In this document: piece by piece, positions 16,436-59,574 of the stretch
Layout: every line of letters begins with the position of its first letter
Position numbering within the stretch: position 1 is the stretch's first letter
From: Paenibacillus odorifer
Lineage (GTDB): Bacteria; Bacillota; Bacilli; Paenibacillales; Paenibacillaceae
DNA: 64,000 bases
Direction of reading: 5' to 3'
Assembly (NCBI RefSeq): GCF_000758725.1
Contig: NZ_CP009428.1
Location: 372,001 to 436,000, forward strand
Program-made: the position numbers and the translations under genes
Notes under the pieces: model-generated
Databases searched by the model: none
The model's input: only the letters and a program-made list of their open reading frames with translations
Told to the model about the DNA's origin: nothing

Positions 16436-19400
16436 ATGAAGCGGTGCACAATGTTGCTTCTGATTATTTTTCTGCTTTTGCTCGTACCTCCTACAGCCGC
16501 TCACGCCGAAAGAGAGGATATAAGGTACCAAGTAGAACTGGAATATCCACCGTATAAATATGTAGAAAATGGGTATTTGACCGGGTTTGATATTAATTTG
16601 AGCACGATGATTTTTGAGAAGCAGGATTATCTTATTCACTACAGTACTGGGCAATGGGATGAAGTTTACAGTCGGCTGATTCAAGGAGATATTGAGATAG
16701 CAGGTCTTATGGCAATTACGGAGTCGCGTAACCAAGAGGTGTTATTTTCAGATCCGGTTATTAAAAACTATATTTCCATCTATGCAAGGCGAGAGCTTGA
16801 GGATGAGATCGATTTAAAGACGTTGGGAAGTTATAAGATTGGGTTAGGGAATGGACAGTATTCTGCAACCGTGCTGAACAGCAAGGTGGGGATTACAAAT
16901 TACATAGAGTATGCAACGACTCCTGAAGCTTTAAAGGCTCTTGAAAAAGGGGAAATCGACCTTCTATTTGAGAATCAGGAAGTGATCGATTATCTGATTG
17001 CTGAACAGAAATTGAAGGGGAGTATTATCAAAAAAATGAGCAATCTCTACCCTAGGGATGTTGCTTTTGCAATAAGTAAATCCGCTCCGGAGCTAGTAAC
17101 TTATGTTAACGAGAGATTGGATCGCCTGCATCGTTCCGGTGCTTTTGAAGAGCTGTATCAGCACTATTTCTACGTTCATTCAGATTATTATAAAGTTATG
17201 ATGCGCAATAGATTTATTGTGGGAGCCATTATTCTGCTTGGTCTTCTAATCATTAGTGCGGTTTTGCTAAAAATGTATATTAATCACTTACGGCGTGCGG
17301 TTTATTCGGAACAGCAATTTTTTGAGGATGTAATAGAGCATAGCGGTATGGTGGTTTGGGCTGTGCAGGCGGATAAAAAGGTAGTTCGGTTTAACAATTA
17401 CGCTGAGCGAATGACGGGCCTATGCGAGAATGAAGTAGTGGGCAAAAACATTGCGGATATGGAGGGTCTGACAGGCAGTACGGCGGCTATTCGGAATCTG
17501 CTGGAAAGAGCCGTACAGCTTGACTATGTTGATAATATCGAGCATAAACTTCCGGACAATTCGCCAGCAGCGCGGTATTTTTCATTTCGGACCACCTTGT
17601 TAAAAGGATTGGATAAGCAGGCAGCTGATATTTTTGTGCTTGTAGGAGTGGATATCGATGAGCGCAAACAAAATGAGCTAAGGCTTCAGCAAAGTTATGA
17701 GGAACTGGAAGCTACTTACGAAGAGCTGTCAGCGACAGAGGTCGAGCTACAGGAGCAATTTGCTAAGCTGCAGGTAGGTGAACGACGGTTCAGTCTCGCG
17801 ACAGAGGGTTCTGGTGCTTACATGTGGGAGCTTGATTGGGAGACAGGACTGTATAATCTATCGGATCGCTGGTACAAGCTCATGGGCTATACGGAGGATG
17901 AAATCAATTCATTCGAAAATGGGGTGCTTAGTATTATTCATCCCGATGACCAGCCATCATCCCAAAAGGCAAGACATGATCATCTGGCAGGTTTAACACC
18001 TATCTACGAGACGGAATACCGCATGCGGACCAAAGATAATCAATTCGTCTGGTTTGAGGTAAGTGGTAAAGCTATCGTTGATCCAAAGGATGAAGTTGTG
18101 TTATTTATCGGTTCACTGATTGATATTAGTAAGCGGAAGCAGGTAGAGCTAAAGCTGAGCAACAGTTATCAGGAGCTTGAGGCAACCTATGAACAGCTAA
18201 CAGCCACACAGCAGGAGCTTGTAGAGCAATACGATATGCTGGTGGAGAATCAAAAACACATGCATCGTTTAGCTTATGTGGATGAGCTTAGTAATTTACC
18301 CAACCGTGTATGTCTACTGGAATCTATGGAGAAATATCTGCAATGTTCAGGAGGCAAGGCGGCGCTGTTGTTCGTAGATACCGATAATTTTAAATACATC
18401 AATGATACCTTAGGGCATAAATCCGGTGATGTTCTCATTCAGAAGGCTAGCAAAAGGCTGCAGTCGTTGGTGCGTGAAGGGGATATGCTCTCTCGGCTCG
18501 GTGGGGATGAATTCGTGATTTTTATTAAGGATATAGAAAACCACGAGGATGTGTTAGACCTGGCGGAGCGTATCATGAGAGCATTCAGGCAGTCCTTTTT
18601 AATCGGAGAGAGTTATTTGTACGTTTCCGTAAGCATCGGAATTTCCTTTTATCCGGAAGATGGGGAGACCACCGAGCAAATCTTAAAAAATGCGGATGTC
18701 GCTATGTACCGGGCGAAAGAGGATGGCAAGGGGACTTATGTGGTATATGACAAATCCATGCATACTGCGTTTAATGAACGGATGAATATAGAGAAGCATT
18801 TGCGCAGTGCCATGAATAATAATGAGTTTGAGCTATATTATCAACCGCAGGTGGATATCCAGTCTGGATTAATCTCTGGTTTTGAGGCTTTAATTCGCTG
18901 GAATAGTCCAACGCTGGGCTTTGTATCTCCACTTTCCTTTATCAAAATCGCCGAGGATTCCAGGCTGATTATTTATATTGGAGAATGGGTGCTTAGGGAA
19001 TCGTGCATCTTTATGAAGGGCATTCAAGATCGTATGGGCATTCCTTACAAGATATCAGTTAATATTTCCATTATTCAACTATTGCAGGATGATTTCGTCG
19101 AGATGGTGCAGGAAAGTCTGGCTGAAAGCGGGCTAAAGCCTAGTTGTCTTGAACTGGAAATCACCGAGTCTATTTTTATGGAATCGTTTGAGAGTATCGT
19201 GAATAAGCTTCAATTCCTCAAATCCCAAGGCATTCGTATTGCGCTGGATGATTTCGGAACGGGGTACTCATCTCTTAGTTATTTGCAGCAATTGCCGATT
19301 TCTACGCTTAAAATGGATAAAACCTTTATCGATTCGCTTTCGGAAAAAGCTTACAGCCAGTCTTTTGTGCAGACCATTATACAGCTGGGACACAATATGG

Positions 19401-19676: not shown

Positions 19677-20771
19677 CTAGCTGATGACAATTTTATTCTT
19701 CCCGGTGTTTTTAGCTTCGTAAAGTGCATCATCAGCCTGCTGAAAAGTGGAATTTTTGGAGTCTGCGCCTGTGTAATCATGCATCCCGATACTGACGGTT
19801 ATGCTTTTACCTTCCATTTCGGCAAAAGGGGTATCGGCTACTTTGGCTAGAATTTGTTGCATGATTTCATAGGATCGCTCAAAGGTTTTGGTAGTCAAAA
19901 TGACAATGAATTCCTCGCCACCGTACCGCGCGGCGAAATCATCAGGACCGATATACTCGAGCAGAATCGCTGCGACTTTTTGTAATACGATATCTCCAAC
20001 GGAGTGTCCATAGCAATCATTTACTTTTTTGAAATTATCGATATCCATAACGGCAAGCTGCATGGAGAATGGATTACTCTGCTGATGCTCAATTAGCCAA
20101 CCTAAATATTCGTGAAAAGTCTTGTGATTATACAGATCAGTCAGGGGGTCTATCTTAGATAGACGATCCATAATTATATTCTGAATGCGTAATTCCTGTT
20201 CTGACTTAACGGAGTTCTGCAGGGATTGCATCAAATCACGTCCACGAACGATTACTGCAAAACCTGCCAAAGCAGTGCCTGCAAAAATAAGAGCGATAAT
20301 GATAGTTTGGGTGATCGGTAAGTACTCGTGAATGGGTGTCCTGATGAATAAAATGATCGTGTACAGTAGAGAAATAGCAGAAGTGGCTATCATATAACTG
20401 CTCTTCAGATAGATCATCGAGACTAGTAGCGGGAACAGCATAATTAATGATTTAACATGCAACTCATCGCTGAGATTGACGATAATCAAAACCGCAAATA
20501 GATGGCTTGCAACCGTAATGGCGAGTTGGGCCCACAGAGGCCTCCATCTATAGATTACTTCTAGAATAATGATCAAACTCACTATGATGGAATCAGAAAT
20601 CAACGAGTGCTCAATATAATCGTTCCTGGTTGGGGTTTCCGGACGCTGGCTCCATAAGGATAGAGAAACAATGAACTGAATACTTAAATACACAATCAGG
20701 ATGATCCAGAATGAATTGAGAAGCACACGATTCCAATAGGTCTGACGAGGAGTTTGAGGTGTGGCGCGCAT
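19677..20771 (-). CDS. Membrane diguanylate cyclase (GGEEF)
   Basis: A 364-residue protein with about six N-terminal membrane helices (residues 15-175, MASE-like) and a C-terminal GGDEF domain. The active site reads ARYGGEEF, a functional variant. The residues five positions before it read GPDD rather than RxxD, so the inhibitory site is missing and the enzyme may lack feedback control. Substrate-binding segments DPLTDLYNHKTFHEYL and VMDIDNFKKVNDCYGH are present. It converges on the GGDEF-EAL gene. The pair suggests local clustering of c-di-GMP enzymes in a genome that also carries a c-di-GMP riboswitch at 55.9 kb. Confidence 0.92.
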   Translation of the reverse strand: MRATPQTPRQTYWNRVLLNSFWIILIVYLSIQFIVSLSLWSQRPETPTRNDYIEHSLISDSIIVSLIIILEVIYRWRPLWAQLAITVASHLFAVLIIVNLSDELHVKSLIMLFPLLVSMIYLKSSYMIATSAISLLYTIILFIRTPIHEYLPITQTIIIALIFAGTALAGFAVIVRGRDLMQSLQNSVKSEQELRIQNIIMDRLSKIDPLTDLYNHKTFHEYLGWLIEHQQSNPFSMQLAVMDIDNFKKVNDCYGHSVGDIVLQKVAAILLEYIGPDDFAARYGGEEFIVILTTKTFERSYEIMQQILAKVADTPFAEMEGKSITVSIGMHDYTGADSKNSTFQQADDALYEAKNTGKNKIVIS

Positions 20772-55472: not shown

Positions 55473-55881
55473 GAATACATCCTCCTTAACGGATGAACTC
55501 CATACGTGACATTTTGTGTCAACGCTTACTGGAGCTGTGATGATTGCGGTTTCATTTCTCATCTTATTGTGCTACTTTCAGCCACTGTAATCAATTCATT
55601 CTTTCGTCCAATACGTTCGCAAAATGGTATAGGTTAGCTTGTTCTAATGAAAAGAAGGGTGTTTCTTCTCATTACCCATTCTAAAGGCCTATTAAAATGA
55701 TTCTATTATCCTTATTTTTAACTATTAGGTCAGTAAATATTTATTTTGCTAGTACAATTTATTTTATGTAACGGACGAGTATCGTGATAATCGGACAAGA
55801 TCTTTGAAAAAAAATCTTTTATTTTTCGTTTTTAAAATAGAAAGTAACCAGGAATCGACACACTTTTCCGCTTTCTTTTTG

Positions 55882-55887
55882 TATAAT
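55882..55887 (+). promoter_or_regulatory. -10 element of the sinI leader
   Basis: A perfect TATAAT stands about 55 bp before the riboswitch. No good -35 lies 16-18 bp upstream (TCGACA is 21 bp away), so an activator such as a phosphorylated regulator may help. Confidence 0.6.
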
Positions 55888-55941
55888 GTTATTGCAGATA
55901 GTAATTTTATAGTTTTTTAAGCAGATCCTTTCGTGAAAAGG

Positions 55942-56031
55942 GTCCAGTAAAAGGTAAACTTGCCGAAAGGCAGGGGCACAAAGTCGCGGGTCTAAGGTAG
56001 AGATACTATGACAGCCGGATTGCCTGGGGAC
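55942..56031 (+). ncRNA. c-di-GMP-I (GEMM-I) riboswitch
   Basis: The aptamer core is nearly complete. P1 joins GGTAA (55953-55957) with TTGCC (56020-56024) and can extend with GTCC/GGAC (55942-55945/56028-56031). The first hairpin CTTGCC-GAAA-GGCAGG has the GNRA tetraloop that docks on the second. Then comes GGCACAAAGTC, a variant of the ACGCAAAGC core, then GCGGGTCTAAGG and the closing GCCGG. An upstream hairpin (55924-55931 with 55937-55944) shares bases with the extended P1. Downstream, AAAATCT (56034-56040) pairs with AGATTTT (56048-56054), placing the ribosome binding site AGGGGGAG in the loop and edge of a short hairpin. Class assignment is strong; on or off direction is not decided by sequence alone. 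Confidence 0.9.
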
Positions 56032-56054
56032 GTAAAATCTTAGGGGGAGATTTT

Positions 56055-56210
56055 TTGGAAAAGTCCAACCAGGGTAGCAACAGAGAACAGCAGTTTATTG
56101 ATCTGGATCAAGAGTGGGTACATTTATTATTAGCAGCTAAGAAGGCTGGCATTAAGGCAGATGAAATCCGCCAGTTCTTTCATGAGAAAACTGTGCAGAT
56201 CGTGCAGTAA
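56055..56210 (+). CDS. sinI: SinI-like antirepressor (51 residues)
   Basis: A TTG start lies five bases after AGGGGGAG, right behind the c-di-GMP riboswitch. Residues 17-44 (LDQEWVHLLLAAKKAGIKAD and then EIRQFFHE) closely match the SinR-binding region of Bacillus SinI (LDQEWVELMVEAKEANIS, then EEIRKYL). SinI binds the C-terminal helices of SinR and releases it from DNA, which switches on matrix genes. The sinR homologue lies just downstream in convergent orientation, sharing a terminator. In Bacillus subtilis sinI responds to Spo0A; here the leader predicts direct control by c-di-GMP. No other product fits. Confidence 0.9.
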   Translation: MEKSNQGSNREQQFIDLDQEWVHLLLAAKKAGIKADEIRQFFHEKTVQIVQ

Positions 56211-56816: not shown

Positions 56817-57425
56817 TTAGTAGTCTTTTTTCGCACCTTGTTTAGCTACGAAATCCCAAGTCAGTGTTAAGCTATCGCCTTGGAAAATATTTTGATCTTG
56901 GTTATTTTCCACAAATTCGAATTGGACGGAGAAGCTGTCATTGGTACCGGCTTTAATACCGGATGCTTCGGTAAAGAGTTGATCCCAACCTGTATTTTTT
57001 ACGAGATCCGGATGCTGACTTTTTAAAGCAGCAAGTGTAGTCTCATAAACTACATTTTCAGGAGAGACGATAGGTACCCCTTTATCATTATTTCTAAGGA
57101 ATTTAACTTTAATGAACTCGGCTAAATCCAAGTAGTTATCTCCTTTAGCATCCGTGATTTGAGTCGATGTATTCAGAATGATAGATCCGATATCGAGCGA
57201 ACCATCGTTTTTCAATTTGAAGGATTTAGTTACAGTATCACCTGGTTTCAGGTTAGGAATATTAACGATGACAGAAGGGTCGGAGTTCAGATCGAGTGTA
57301 CCCGCTGCGAATGTAGCTGTGCTTTGCGCAGTGTCGCTAAAGTATGCGAAGGTTCCTCCGCCGATTAATGATAAACCCAGTGCTGCAGATGCTACGCCAA
57401 GACCCAATGTTTTCTTGATACCCAT
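56817..57425 (-). CDS. tasA: TasA/CalY-type matrix fibre protein
   Basis: A 202-residue secreted protein. The ATG at 57425 (MGIKKTLGLGVASAALGLSL) follows AGGAGG. The signal peptide ends in GGGTFAYFSDT, the hallmark of SipW substrates, and the mature N terminus STATFAAGTLDLNSDP matches TasA and camelysin. The NLKPGDTVTKSFKLKNDGSL stretch is the conserved start of the beta-sandwich. TasA forms the protein fibres of the biofilm matrix. It is the last gene after the TapA-position and sipW genes, the same order as in B. subtilis tapA-sipW-tasA. Its length is nearer CalY than B. subtilis TasA. Confidence 0.94.
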   Translation of the reverse strand: MGIKKTLGLGVASAALGLSLIGGGTFAYFSDTAQSTATFAAGTLDLNSDPSVIVNIPNLKPGDTVTKSFKLKNDGSLDIGSIILNTSTQITDAKGDNYLDLAEFIKVKFLRNNDKGVPIVSPENVVYETTLAALKSQHPDLVKNTGWDQLFTEASGIKAGTNDSFSVQFEFVENNQDQNIFQGDSLTLTWDFVAKQGAKKDY

Positions 57426-57515: not shown

Positions 57516-58106
57516 TTAGGGCTGTGTTTCTGTTGGGGACGGTGAGGCTGGCAGTAGGGCAGTATTTTTCTTTTCTAATGCAGCTACAGCCTTCCAAGAG
57601 GTATACAGAGCATAGAGCAGAAGCATCAAGCCAGGCACGATCATGAGGACTACACTTCCAGCTTTGGAAACCGCGAAATTCATAGCGTAACCGACATAGG
57701 GTACAGTGACCCCGGTATACTGAGCTACAACATTCGCAGAACTGGTTGGGTTCATGTCGGGTGCGTCGTTGTTATCGCCTTTAGTGCGATAAACAGCTTC
57801 ACCAGTAGCGTTATTGACGGTCGCTTCTACAATCCGGTGAGTAATGAGCAGATTATCTTCGTTCCTAAAGGTGATGACATCGCCTGGTTTGAAACGATTC
57901 ATATCCCCTCCGGGTTTTAATGCGACAATTGAGCCTGTCTGAATTCCTGGTTCCATCGATCCTGAGAGTACGGTTTTGATCTCATATCCGAAGAAAGCAG
58001 GTTCACCACCGGAGGCCTTGGATAACACTACGGCTGCCACCAGCAGAATAAAGATCACAAGCATTAAGCTCGATAAGGTATTATTGATAATTTTTTTAAT
58101 TCGCAT
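57516..58106 (-). CDS. sipW: SipW-type signal peptidase I
   Basis: A 196-residue membrane peptidase of the ER/archaeal class. The nucleophile Ser is in VLSGSMEPGI, and ITHRI carries a His in place of the usual general-base Lys, which defines the SipW group. KGDNNDAPDMNP is the third conserved box. Helices lie at both ends (about 12-32 and 150-172). It cleaves TasA and the TapA-type protein. ATG 58106 follows AAAGGTGGAG, directly after the stop of the previous gene. Confidence 0.94.
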   Translation of the reverse strand: MRIKKIINNTLSSLMLVIFILLVAAVVLSKASGGEPAFFGYEIKTVLSGSMEPGIQTGSIVALKPGGDMNRFKPGDVITFRNEDNLLITHRIVEATVNNATGEAVYRTKGDNNDAPDMNPTSSANVVAQYTGVTVPYVGYAMNFAVSKAGSVVLMIVPGLMLLLYALYTSWKAVAALEKKNTALLPASPSPTETQP

Positions 58107-58107
58107 C

Positions 58108-59355
58108 TTATTCTCCACCTTTCTCAGGTTGAGGGTCCGAAGGAGCTTGGGTTGCTACCGGCGGGGTAGTCGTACTGTCTTCCGCCTTTGGCGTCTCTTG
58201 TGGAGCCTCTTGCTGAGGAACATCTTTTGGAATTGTGAGCTCTTCACCAATTTCCGGCTTAACCGGGTCAGTGGCTGGGGCTTCAGGTTGTTCTTTATTT
58301 GGGGCTTCCGGAGCAGCTTCACCTGACGTTGGAGGGGTTGCCTCAGCTTTCGCTTTATCCTCGGCTTCTTGTTGCTTTTTCTCCTCAGCCAAACGTTCTT
58401 CTTCCTTCTTCGCTTCTTCTTCTTTCTTTGCTTGCTCTTCTTCTAGCCGAGCTTTTTCAAGCTCTTCTAGTTTTTGCTCGCGAGTCTGACTGATCATTTG
58501 GAGTTTATCTTGAAGGGTAGTGATACCTGAGGTTGCCGATTCTTTAAGGTTAGTCAATTCGGTATTTAGAGCTTCATAAGTGGAGGTGAGGTCGCTAGAG
58601 ATCACGCCATCTGGTTGAGTGAAGGTAATCAGGAATGGCAGCGGCTGTGGGAACTCTCCTTCGCGTAATTCAAGTTGTCCATAAACATCACTGGTAACTA
58701 CCGAAGCGAATGGAAGACCGACATCGTGTATGGAGGTTAGGTAACTAATAACTCCATTTAAGGAAGCATTCAAGGATTCCGAGATCACACCGCTTTGATT
58801 CAGGCTGCTTTGTAAATCTCTGAAAAATTGCTCATCCTTGATTTCTAGACAGTTTGAATCTAGAGAAGTCATATATCCTCCTATCTGGAAGAGTAAGGCT
58901 GCTGCTGCACTTAGCTCATTGTGGATTTGATTCCAAATTTGGCTGTTAGCCGCCAGTTGCTCGTTAACGCTATCTATTTGGGATTGAAGCGCCGCTATTT
59001 GCGAAGAAATCTCTTGTGCAGCGACATCAAGCTCTTCCAGCGACATCCCTTCTATTCCCGAAACGTCCGAGTAGTTAGCTGATGAGGAAAAGGGTTGTAG
59101 TGATTCTTTTAAAGTGAGCGCTCGATTAACATGCTCTTTGAACTCTGTAAGCAGTGCCTTGATCGAATTCGGAAATACTTCGCAAAAGCTAATCGTGCTA
59201 GTGGTTTGCGCAGCAGCTCCAAAGCCTCCATAGGTACCACCAACTTGCTGCGAGGTATATAGAAATAAGACGGAGACAGCCATTCCTGATTGCAGTATAC
59301 GTAAACCAATTTTCCTGTTTCTTCTAGGTCTTCTCCTTGCTGATCTGGGTCTCAG
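58108..59355 (-). CDS. TapA-position secreted coiled-coil protein
   Basis: About 415 residues. The start is inferred as CTG at 59355, seven bases behind AGGGGAGG; upstream ATG 59439 has no such site, and SinR boxes fall between the two. An Arg-rich N terminus leads to a helix (LQSGMAVSVLFLYTSQQVGG) ending GTYGGFGAAAQTTSTIS, like SipW-cleaved signal peptides (GTYAYFSDT type). The mature protein has long coiled coils (about 70-300) and a Glu/Lys/Ala-rich then Pro-rich tail. It lacks clear similarity to Bacillus TapA but holds its place in the operon, so it is probably a fibre assembly or anchoring protein. Confidence 0.8.
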   Translation of the reverse strand: MRPRSARRRPRRNRKIGLRILQSGMAVSVLFLYTSQQVGGTYGGFGAAAQTTSTISFCEVFPNSIKALLTEFKEHVNRALTLKESLQPFSSSANYSDVSGIEGMSLEELDVAAQEISSQIAALQSQIDSVNEQLAANSQIWNQIHNELSAAAALLFQIGGYMTSLDSNCLEIKDEQFFRDLQSSLNQSGVISESLNASLNGVISYLTSIHDVGLPFASVVTSDVYGQLELREGEFPQPLPFLITFTQPDGVISSDLTSTYEALNTELTNLKESATSGITTLQDKLQMISQTREQKLEELEKARLEEEQAKKEEEAKKEEERLAEEKKQQEAEDKAKAEATPPTSGEAAPEAPNKEQPEAPATDPVKPEIGEELTIPKDVPQQEAPQETPKAEDSTTTPPVATQAPSDPQPEKGGE

Positions 59356-59400
59356 AGGAATACCTCCCCTCAATGTCTGTTTCTTTGGTTCGTTATTATC

Positions 59401-59574
59401 GTTCTTTATTAAGAACAACTTCTGTAATGAATCATACATGGAATAAAACAAAAAGAAAACTGCCAATAACGCGCATTTGTACTCTATAAAGAACAAAAAT
59501 GATAATTTATCTCTGAATAACTCTATTTATCGCTCGATTACTAAATATATTCGCAATAAAGAACGATCTTTTAG
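59401..59574 (-). promoter_or_regulatory. SinR-type operator boxes upstream of the matrix operon
   Basis: On the minus strand, GTTCTTT occurs at 59574-59568 and 59494-59488, and GTTCTT-AATA-AAGAAC forms a perfect inverted pair at 59416-59401. The SinR consensus is GTTCTYT, often in pairs or inverted pairs. All lie within 220 bp upstream of the proposed CTG start, as expected for repression by SinR. Confidence 0.75.

What the first reader, a model, noticed from the sequence alone, without database searches (positions are those of the whole stretch)
55882..56210. c-di-GMP-I riboswitch directly in front of a sinI antirepressor gene
The leader of the 51-codon sinI-like gene contains a recognisable GEMM-I aptamer (GGTAAAC, a GAAA-capped hairpin, GGCACAAAGTC, GCGGGTCTAAGG, GCCGG-TTGCC) ending about 10 bases before a short hairpin around the ribosome binding site. 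Known: GEMM-I RNAs bind c-di-GMP, and SinI inactivates SinR, the repressor of matrix genes. Inferred: c-di-GMP sets SinI level and so the motile-to-biofilm choice at the RNA level. In B. subtilis this point is held by Spo0A at the promoter. I know of no description of a c-di-GMP riboswitch on sinI, but could not search.
Basis: partly seen in the sequence, partly recalled or inferred. Interest (0 to 1): 0.93.

Follow-up and report, generated by a model that had tools for sequence, protein, structure and literature searches.

The report
c-di-GMP riboswitch on biofilm antirepressor sinI
The leader of sinI, a small gene predicted to switch on biofilm matrix production, carries a c-di-GMP-type riboswitch whose folding would likely expose the start of the gene only when the signal molecule is bound, and some related bacteria carry the same kind of sensor, or an unrelated one predicted to read the same signal, on their own sinI-like genes.

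Summary
Window 55944-56028 is a class I c-di-GMP aptamer (RF01051 77.6 bits) ending 26 bases before the TTG of sinI. All 64 sinI genes found in 100 genus genomes carry it. The P1 3' strand (CCUGG-GGAC) is complementary to sinI codons 3-7 (GUCC-AA-CCAGG); codons 4-6 are identical in 64 of 64, while seven other invariant multi-codon residues each use two or more codons. Predicted mechanism: without ligand the coding strand captures the P1 strand and closes the start site; with c-di-GMP, P1 forms and sinI is translated. Outside the genus, 26 of 40 fetched family places have c-di-GMP riboswitches, 16 class I and 10 of the unrelated class II; 15 of 40 hand-chosen places in other families have class I. 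I found the bare association in print once (Bacillus methanolicus, 2015, a sentence and a table row); platform, spread and class I/II convergence were not found in my searches. Ligand binding, direction and biofilm effect are untested.

The parts
55854..55860 (+). ATCGACA, reverse strand TGTCGAT: Spo0A-box-like element upstream of the -10 box
   Evidence: CGACACA lies exactly 26 bases before TA[TC]AAT in 61 of 64 genus leaders, 3 lack it; box consensus TGTCGAA recalled; 9 of 64 leaders match it perfectly
55882..55887 (+). TATAAT, likely -10 box; no matching sigma-70 -35 hexamer on this strand
   Evidence: sequence; conserved; the consensus scan finds no + strand promoter
55924..55944 (+). Hairpin P0 in front of the aptamer; its last base overlaps P1
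   Evidence: seen in the alignment of 64 leaders with some variation; in the folds
55944..56028 (+). c-di-GMP-I (GEMM-I) aptamer; GAAA-capped P2, P3, bases GG / CAAAG / TGCC at the ligand-contact places
   Evidence: RF03167 66.9 bits, RF01051 77.6 bits
55944..55947 (+). P1 5' strand CCAG (predicted ON state)
   Evidence: cmscan alignment; pairs with 56024-56027
56023..56031 (+). Exchange strand CCTGG-GGAC: CTGG is the P1 3' strand (ON), CCTGGGGAC the 5' side of the predicted OFF helix
   Evidence: sequence; CCTGGGGAC in 63 of 64 and CCTGGGGAT in 1 of 64 leaders
56034..56054 (+). Hairpin AAAAUCUU-AGGGG-GAGAUUUU with the ribosome-binding purines 56043-56049 in loop and 3' arm
   Evidence: fold; kept with variations in the alignment of 64 leaders
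56063..56073 (+). GTCC-AA-CCAGG inside sinI codons 3-7: 3' side of the predicted OFF helix
   Evidence: 64 of 64 identical; 9 of 9 pairs possible in 64 of 64
56055..56210 (+). sinI, 51 aa, TTG start (TTG in 63 of 64, GTG in 1)
   Evidence: PF08671 40.5 bits
56318..56659 (-). sinR, convergent with sinI
   Evidence: HTH_3 plus SinI-type domain; solved SinR 1b0n_A E 7e-40
56817..57425 (-). Camelysin/TasA-type matrix gene (start at the ATG inside the listed ORF)
   Evidence: PF12389 255 bits; TIGR04088 SipW-type signal 42 bits over cut-off 19; the Bacillus TasA equivalog NF046066 is matched at 100.4 bits, below its cut-off of 450
57516..58118 (-). sipW signal peptidase gene
   Evidence: NF046067 251.9 bits, cut-off 190
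58108..59496 (-). Coiled-coil gene in the place that tapA holds in B. subtilis (order recalled); true start probably lies inside the ORF
   Evidence: ORF list; no family above its cut-off
59401..59564 (.). Three GTTCTTT sites (59401 +, 59488 -, 59558 -), SinR-box-like, at the front of this operon
   Evidence: 3 of the window's 23 matches lie in 164 bases; 16.3 expected in all 64 kb; box consensus recalled

Best explanation
The leader of sinI holds a class I c-di-GMP-type aptamer that is predicted to act as a translational ON switch by strand exchange with the sinI coding sequence. Step by step: (1) without ligand, CCUGG-GGAC at the 3' end of the aptamer would pair with GUCC-AA-CCAGG of codons 3-7, a 9-pair helix that encloses the ribosome site and the TTG start and lies within the stretch that the 30S subunit must open (recalled footprint); (2) c-di-GMP binding would stabilise P1 (CCAG with CUGG), which uses the same strand, so the coding strand is released and sinI is translated; (3) SinI would then bind SinR and free the tapA-like/sipW/tasA-type operon. 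High c-di-GMP would therefore favour matrix production, probably together with a Spo0A-dependent promoter. Shown here: aptamer match, gene identity, conservation, complementarity, frozen codons. Predicted: the two folds and the direction. Untested: ligand binding, SinI level, biofilm effect.
For: Aptamer: 64 of 64; 17 of 17. The base aligned to contact residue A47 is A in 64 of 64 and TGCC at the 3' contact is present in 64 of 64; contacts G20, A47, C92 from PMC4744006 (passages). Exchange strand: CCTGGGGAC in 63 of 64 and CCTGGGGAT (wobble) in 1; GTCCAACCAGG in 64 of 64; 9 of 9 pairs in 64 of 64. Codons 4-6 are TCC AAC CAG in 64 of 64, whereas none of 61 Ser codons from codon 9 on is TCC, and each of the seven other invariant multi-codon residues (D, E, L, A, G, R, F) uses at least 2 codons. 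The third base of codon 3 is G in 64 of 64 although the residue is Lys, Met or Gln. In genera g18/g7 the bulge AA becomes GC (Asn codon AAC to Ala GCC) in 13 of 15 scored leaders, and the same 13 keep CCAGG. The free MFE holds the OFF helix in 60 of 61 leaders folded (3 of 64 missed by my pattern). Forcing P1 costs a median 7.7 kcal/mol (63 of 64 leaders), a gap that ligand binding could plausibly pay (inference). Only 5 of 192 synonymous versions of codons 3-7, the native one included, close the start site at least as strongly. Other platforms point the same way: in 8 of 16 class I leaders of other families the P1 3' strand pairs with the SD itself, e.g. CCUGAAAUAC with GUAUUUUAGG, and in class II leaders the aptamer's 3' strand pairs with the SD region in 10 of 10. 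The genome has 17 GGDEF matches.
Against: No binding or expression data. In g18/g7 the OFF helix is less tidy: of 15 leaders scored in strict register (L153 not scorable), 7 have 9 of 9 pairs, 1 has 8, 2 have 6 and 5 have 5, and the 3' strand pairs downstream with P over 0.5 in 10 of 16, not always with the coding strand. Within the genus the helix never varies apart from one wobble, so there is no compensatory change there. In the other families 8 of 16 leaders do not show the strand pairing with the SD. The predicted drop in opening cost of the start region with P1 formed is modest (14.8 to 12.7 kcal/mol), because the inner SD hairpin remains in both states. The whole leader is not unusually stable (z -1.08). 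Vc2, a well-known class I riboswitch, is a translational OFF switch (PMC9262584 passage), so direction cannot be assumed from the class.
Confidence: 0.76

Rival explanations
1. The aptamer is a c-di-GMP riboswitch on sinI, but an OFF switch: ligand binding lowers SinI, for example by stacking the SD hairpin on P1, as in a Vc2-like repression of translation.
For: The inner SD hairpin is largely conserved and a hairpin around the SD is still present when P1 is forced in the leaders printed; Vc2 represses translation (PMC9262584 passage).
Against: The unliganded fold is the more closed one in 60 of 61 leaders, the complementary codons are frozen, and two other platform designs are also predicted to expose the SD when the aptamer forms.
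Confidence: 0.12
2. The codons TCC AAC CAG are kept for the protein or for the start of translation in general, not for pairing with P1; the riboswitch works in another way.
For: Ser-Asn-Gln is invariant as protein in the genus (64 of 64).
Against: Synonymous sites are frozen too; codon 3 keeps its third base across three residues; the residue after Ser changes in g18/g7 while CCAGG stays in 13 of 15 scored leaders. Native codons close the start rather than open it: 5 of 192 synonymous versions, native included, are at least as closed.
Confidence: 0.08
3. The switch works by transcription termination or mRNA stability between aptamer and sinI.
For: The hairpin 56034-56054 is followed by T residues; a different c-di-GMP-I riboswitch of Bacillus thuringiensis, Bc1, has dual terminators (PMC11218506 abstract).
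Against: No terminator-like site on the + strand between aptamer and sinI; the hairpin stem is mostly A-U.
Confidence: 0.07
4. The aptamer senses another ligand (3',3'-cGAMP, or whatever a GGC variant may prefer).
For: cmscan names RF03167, the GGC variant family, here and for 7 of the 17 genus leaders.
Against: RF01051 gives the higher bit score here; the GGC consensus has G where this aptamer has A (alignment), and A is found in 64 of 64; two G stand before [TC]AAA in 64 of 64 (26 counted, 38 read by eye in the output).
Confidence: 0.05

Closest known systems
c-di-GMP-I riboswitch (GEMM-I, RF01051), e.g. Vc2 and Vc1 of Vibrio cholerae
   Same: Aptamer fold and ligand-contact bases; score far above the family threshold
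   Different: Target is an antirepressor; the predicted platform pairs P1 with the coding sequence and turns translation on. Vc2 represses translation (PMC9262584 passage)
'(c-di-GMP)-sinI' of Bacillus methanolicus MGA3, BMMGA3_08510 (Irla et al. 2015, PMC4342826)
   Same: Predicted c-di-GMP riboswitch in a mapped 5' UTR of sinI (section 22 read)
sinI-sinR switch of Bacillus subtilis
   Same: SinI and SinR homologues of the solved proteins, tasA-type gene and sipW beside them
   Different: The B. subtilis control genome has SinI (control), and no control genome has an RF01051 match (control; the same 14 genomes assumed); here sinI and sinR are convergent, not tandem (tandem order recalled)
c-di-GMP-II riboswitch (RF01786)
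   Same: Found on 10 sinI-like genes of four other genera
   Different: Separate Rfam clan, unrelated fold; not present in the window
c-di-GMP riboswitch (class not seen) on the collagen-binding protein gene cbpA of Bacillus thuringiensis (PMC7423583, start of abstract in the search listing)
   Same: c-di-GMP-responsive riboswitch in a Bacillus, on a surface protein
   Different: Controls a single surface protein, not the matrix regulator

Membership tests
c-di-GMP-I riboswitch (RF01051) | Covariance-model score above the curated threshold | tested here: met
   77.6 bits, threshold 35
c-di-GMP-I riboswitch (RF01051) | Ligand-contact bases (G20, A47, C92 of Vc2) | tested here: met
   A in 64 of 64 and TGCC in 64 of 64 at the aligned places; GG before [TC]AAA in 64 of 64 (26 counted, 38 by eye); contacts from PMC4744006 (passages); the placement of G20 and C92 is by eye
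c-di-GMP-I riboswitch (RF01051) | Conserved across species upstream of the same gene | tested here: met
   64 of 64 genus sinI leaders
c-di-GMP-I riboswitch (RF01051) | Binds c-di-GMP | not testable with these tools
   needs in-line probing or calorimetry
c-di-GMP-I-GGC variant (RF03167) | Covariance-model score above the curated threshold | tested here: met
   66.9 bits, threshold 59
c-di-GMP-I-GGC variant (RF03167) | G in place of A at the base aligned to A47 (meaning of the name recalled; consensus letter) | tested here: not met
   A in 64 of 64, so it is filed under canonical class I
SinI antirepressor (PF08671) | Pfam score above cut-off | tested here: met
   40.5 bits, cut-off 31.4
Bacillus SinI equivalog (NF046031) | NCBI equivalog cut-off | tested here: not met
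   34.8 bits, cut-off 80; the model is Bacillus-specific by name
SinI antirepressor (PF08671) | Binds and inactivates SinR | not testable with these tools
   SinR homologue is adjacent; no binding test
Translational ON riboswitch | Mutually exclusive ON and OFF helices controlling access to the start site | tested here: met
   Shared strand 56023-56027; computed, not probed
Translational ON riboswitch | Ligand raises translation | not testable with these tools
   needs reporter or toeprint

The most novel reading that the evidence does not exclude
c-di-GMP is a general and repeatedly re-invented input to SinI across Bacilli: two unrelated aptamer classes and at least three platform designs have converged on ON control of sinI translation, one of them writing its regulatory strand into the codons of sinI itself, and the model B. 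subtilis, which lacks it, is the exception.
Probability: 0.6. Interest if true: 0.88.

Novelty: new variant of a known kind. Interest (0 to 1): 0.8.

Why it matters
In B. subtilis the matrix decision is understood as Spo0A to SinI to SinR (recalled; also stated in a passage of PMC8470499). A c-di-GMP sensor built into sinI would join two of the best-known bacterial lifestyle signals at one small gene, and would show how Gram-positive relatives can put matrix genes under c-di-GMP control without a protein receptor. Finding class I aptamers in some genera and the unrelated class II in others on the same kind of gene is a natural replicate: it suggests that the wiring, not the RNA, is what was selected. 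The coding-sequence platform makes sharp predictions, because synonymous changes in three codons should break the switch.

Tried and rejected
Considered and set aside: a transcription terminator (none on the + strand between aptamer and gene); the GGC variant as the true family (A at the diagnostic base); an alternative ligand; an anti-SD strand in hairpin P0 or in P3 (looked for by eye only; nothing longer than a few pairs); unusual stability of the leader as evidence (z -1.08).

Limits of the surveys. The SinI search found a match in 64 of 100 genus genomes; of the other 36, at least 19 also gave no match to the SinI profile (list cut), the rest were not examined further. From the family search (121 of 344 genomes, 77 of them outside the genus by my count of the listing) I fetched 40 places by score and genus, not at random. 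39 were scanned at the Rfam threshold: 26 positive, 13 negative. The 13 negatives and the fortieth place, L177, were scanned at E up to 0.1: none of 14 positive. From the class search (77 of 398 genomes, listing cut) I chose by hand 40 short-frame places in 36 genomes; 15 were positive, in 14 genomes and 12 families. Negatives may include SinI-like proteins that are not true SinI. Of 5 class II proteins tested against Pfam SinI, 3 pass the cut-off, 1 is just below (30.8) and 1 clearly below (24.8). The name Bacilli for the class is inferred from the genus.

Rows dropped: 3 of 64 leaders from the fold (pattern missed them), 1 of 64 (L067, whose P1 strand is ACAG), 1 of 16 (L153).

Full report
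WHAT IS THERE. The window's only Rfam match at the gathering threshold is a class I c-di-GMP aptamer at 55944-56028. Two families of one clan compete for it: RF03167 (GGC variant, 66.9 bits, threshold 59) and canonical RF01051 (77.6 bits, threshold 35, the best of 8 places in this genome). At the base that I take to separate the two families (meaning of the name recalled; consensus letter) this RNA has the canonical A, as do 64 of 64 genus leaders, itself included, so I file it under canonical class I. The aptamer ends 26 bases before the TTG start of a 51-codon gene that passes Pfam SinI. Convergent with it is sinR (E 7e-40 to solved SinR), followed by a camelysin/TasA-type gene, sipW and a gene in tapA's place. 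Three GTTCTTT sites, the recalled SinR box, lie within 164 bases at the front of that operon. The genome has 17 GGDEF matches, so it can be expected to make c-di-GMP.

CONSERVATION IN THE GENUS. SinI was found in 64 of 100 genus genomes. A covariance model built from 18 aptamers that do not lie on sinI finds an aptamer in 64 of 64 of those sinI loci, one each, E 3.7e-14 to 8.7e-9. Seventeen of them, including the eight weakest, were given to Rfam and 17 of 17 pass. The start codon is TTG in 63 and GTG in 1. In the 11 genus genomes sampled, a second, longer SinI-domain frame of SinR type lies convergent just downstream of sinI in 11 of 11 (places compared).

THE PLATFORM. The strand CCTGG-GGAC at the aptamer's 3' end (CTGG is the P1 3' strand) is complementary to GTCC-AA-CCAGG in codons 3-7. 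All 9 pairs can form in 64 of 64 leaders. Codons 4-6 read TCC AAC CAG in 64 of 64; from codon 9 on, none of 61 Ser codons is TCC, and each of the seven other invariant multi-codon residues uses two or more codons. Codon 3 is Lys, Met or Gln but always ends in G. In genera g18 and g7 the residue after Ser is mostly Ala GCC instead of Asn AAC: in 13 of 15 scored leaders the bulge changed while CCAGG stayed. The unliganded minimum-energy fold holds this helix in 60 of 61 leaders folded; forcing P1 costs a median 7.7 kcal/mol in 63 leaders. Only 5 of 192 synonymous versions of codons 3-7, native included, are as closed. I infer a translational ON switch.

RESULTS AGAINST. In g18/g7 only 7 of 15 scored leaders keep all 9 pairs in strict register; 3 of 15 carry CCCGG on the P1 side and 2 of 15 on the coding side. 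The 3' strand pairs downstream with P over 0.5 in 10 of 16. The drop in opening cost of the start region is modest (14.8 to 12.7 kcal/mol), since the inner SD hairpin persists. The leader's overall fold is ordinary in stability. Vc2, a well-known class I riboswitch, is a translational OFF switch (PMC9262584 passage).

BEYOND THE GENUS. Of 40 sinI-like places fetched from other genera of the family, 26 have a c-di-GMP riboswitch upstream at the Rfam threshold (the fortieth, L177, was scanned only, negative): 16 class I (13 in genus g18, 3 in g7) and 10 class II (6 in g17, 2 in g6, 1 in g2, 1 in g13). Class II is a different Rfam clan with an unrelated fold. In the four class II neighbourhoods examined, a SinR gene 52-58% identical to the window's is convergent with sinI in 4 of 4; by eye a UDP-glucose-epimerase-like gene is near in 3 of 4 and a glycosyltransferase-like gene in the fourth, and no match to the window's TasA-type or SipW protein was found in these 9 to 9.5 kb. 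Of 40 hand-chosen short sinI-like places from other families of the class, 15 have class I aptamers, in 12 families, and so does the Weizmannia acidilactici record L070. In 8 of these 16 leaders the strand at and after the P1 3' side pairs with the SD itself, for example CCUGAAAUAC with GUAUUUUAGG; in 13 of 16 it pairs with something downstream at P over 0.5. In class II leaders the aptamer's 3' strand pairs with the SD region in 10 of 10. So at least three designs with the same predicted ON logic exist. The B. subtilis control has SinI (control); none of the control genomes has an RF01051 match (control).

PROMOTER. CGACACA lies exactly 26 bases before the -10 box in 61 of 64 leaders (3 lack it); reversed it reads TGTCGNN, and 9 of 64 give the recalled Spo0A box TGTCGAA exactly. 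No sigma-70 promoter match is seen on this strand. A Spo0A-dependent promoter plus a c-di-GMP-dependent leader would make a two-input gate; this is inference.

PRIOR WORK. Irla et al. 2015 list a putative c-di-GMP riboswitch on sinI of B. methanolicus (PMC4342826, section 22 read; passages). No other description showed up in these searches, judged by titles and starts of abstracts except where a paper is named: riboswitch, sinI, c-di-GMP, Paenibacillus: 0 papers; sinI, riboswitch, c-di-GMP: 8 papers, passages of three seen, five not opened; 10 papers; 19 papers; 5 papers; 178 papers, 20 listed; 1 paper. Subscription journals are mostly outside that library, and Weinberg et al. 2017, which I recall as the source of the GGC variant, is not held. 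In C. difficile a sinRR' mutant has raised c-di-GMP (PMC5864091 passages), the reverse direction of control.

Noticed in passing
18272-18730 (+) and 19692-20156 (-): Two GGDEF (diguanylate cyclase-type) domains lie in the same window, about 36-38 kb from sinI.
   Followed up: no
own genome G000:C1:728533-728770 (L001, L002): Two c-di-GMP-I aptamers in tandem before an exported transglutaminase-like protein; by eye the first is followed by a T-run hairpin and the second directly by a ribosome site.
   Followed up: partly
L004, L005, L008 (own genome): Other c-di-GMP-I aptamers precede a GH26 + PA14 protein, a DUF6612 protein and a pAdhesive_15 (ice-binding-like adhesive) protein, which suggests a surface-directed regulon.
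   Followed up: partly
L006 and L007 (own genome): Two further aptamers, below the RF03167 cut-off and above RF01051's; L007 lies before a 414-aa protein with a signal-like N-terminus, and no clear target was seen for L006.
   Followed up: no
L252-L255: Class II sinI genes lie convergent with sinR beside epimerase-like or glycosyltransferase-like genes rather than tasA (names by eye); these may be the SinR targets there.
   Followed up: partly
L215 and L216 (genome G400): One genome has two sinI-like genes, each with its own class I aptamer.
   Followed up: no
36 of 100 genus genomes: No SinI match at E 0.001; whether sinI is lost or diverged, and what then controls sinR, is open.
   Followed up: no
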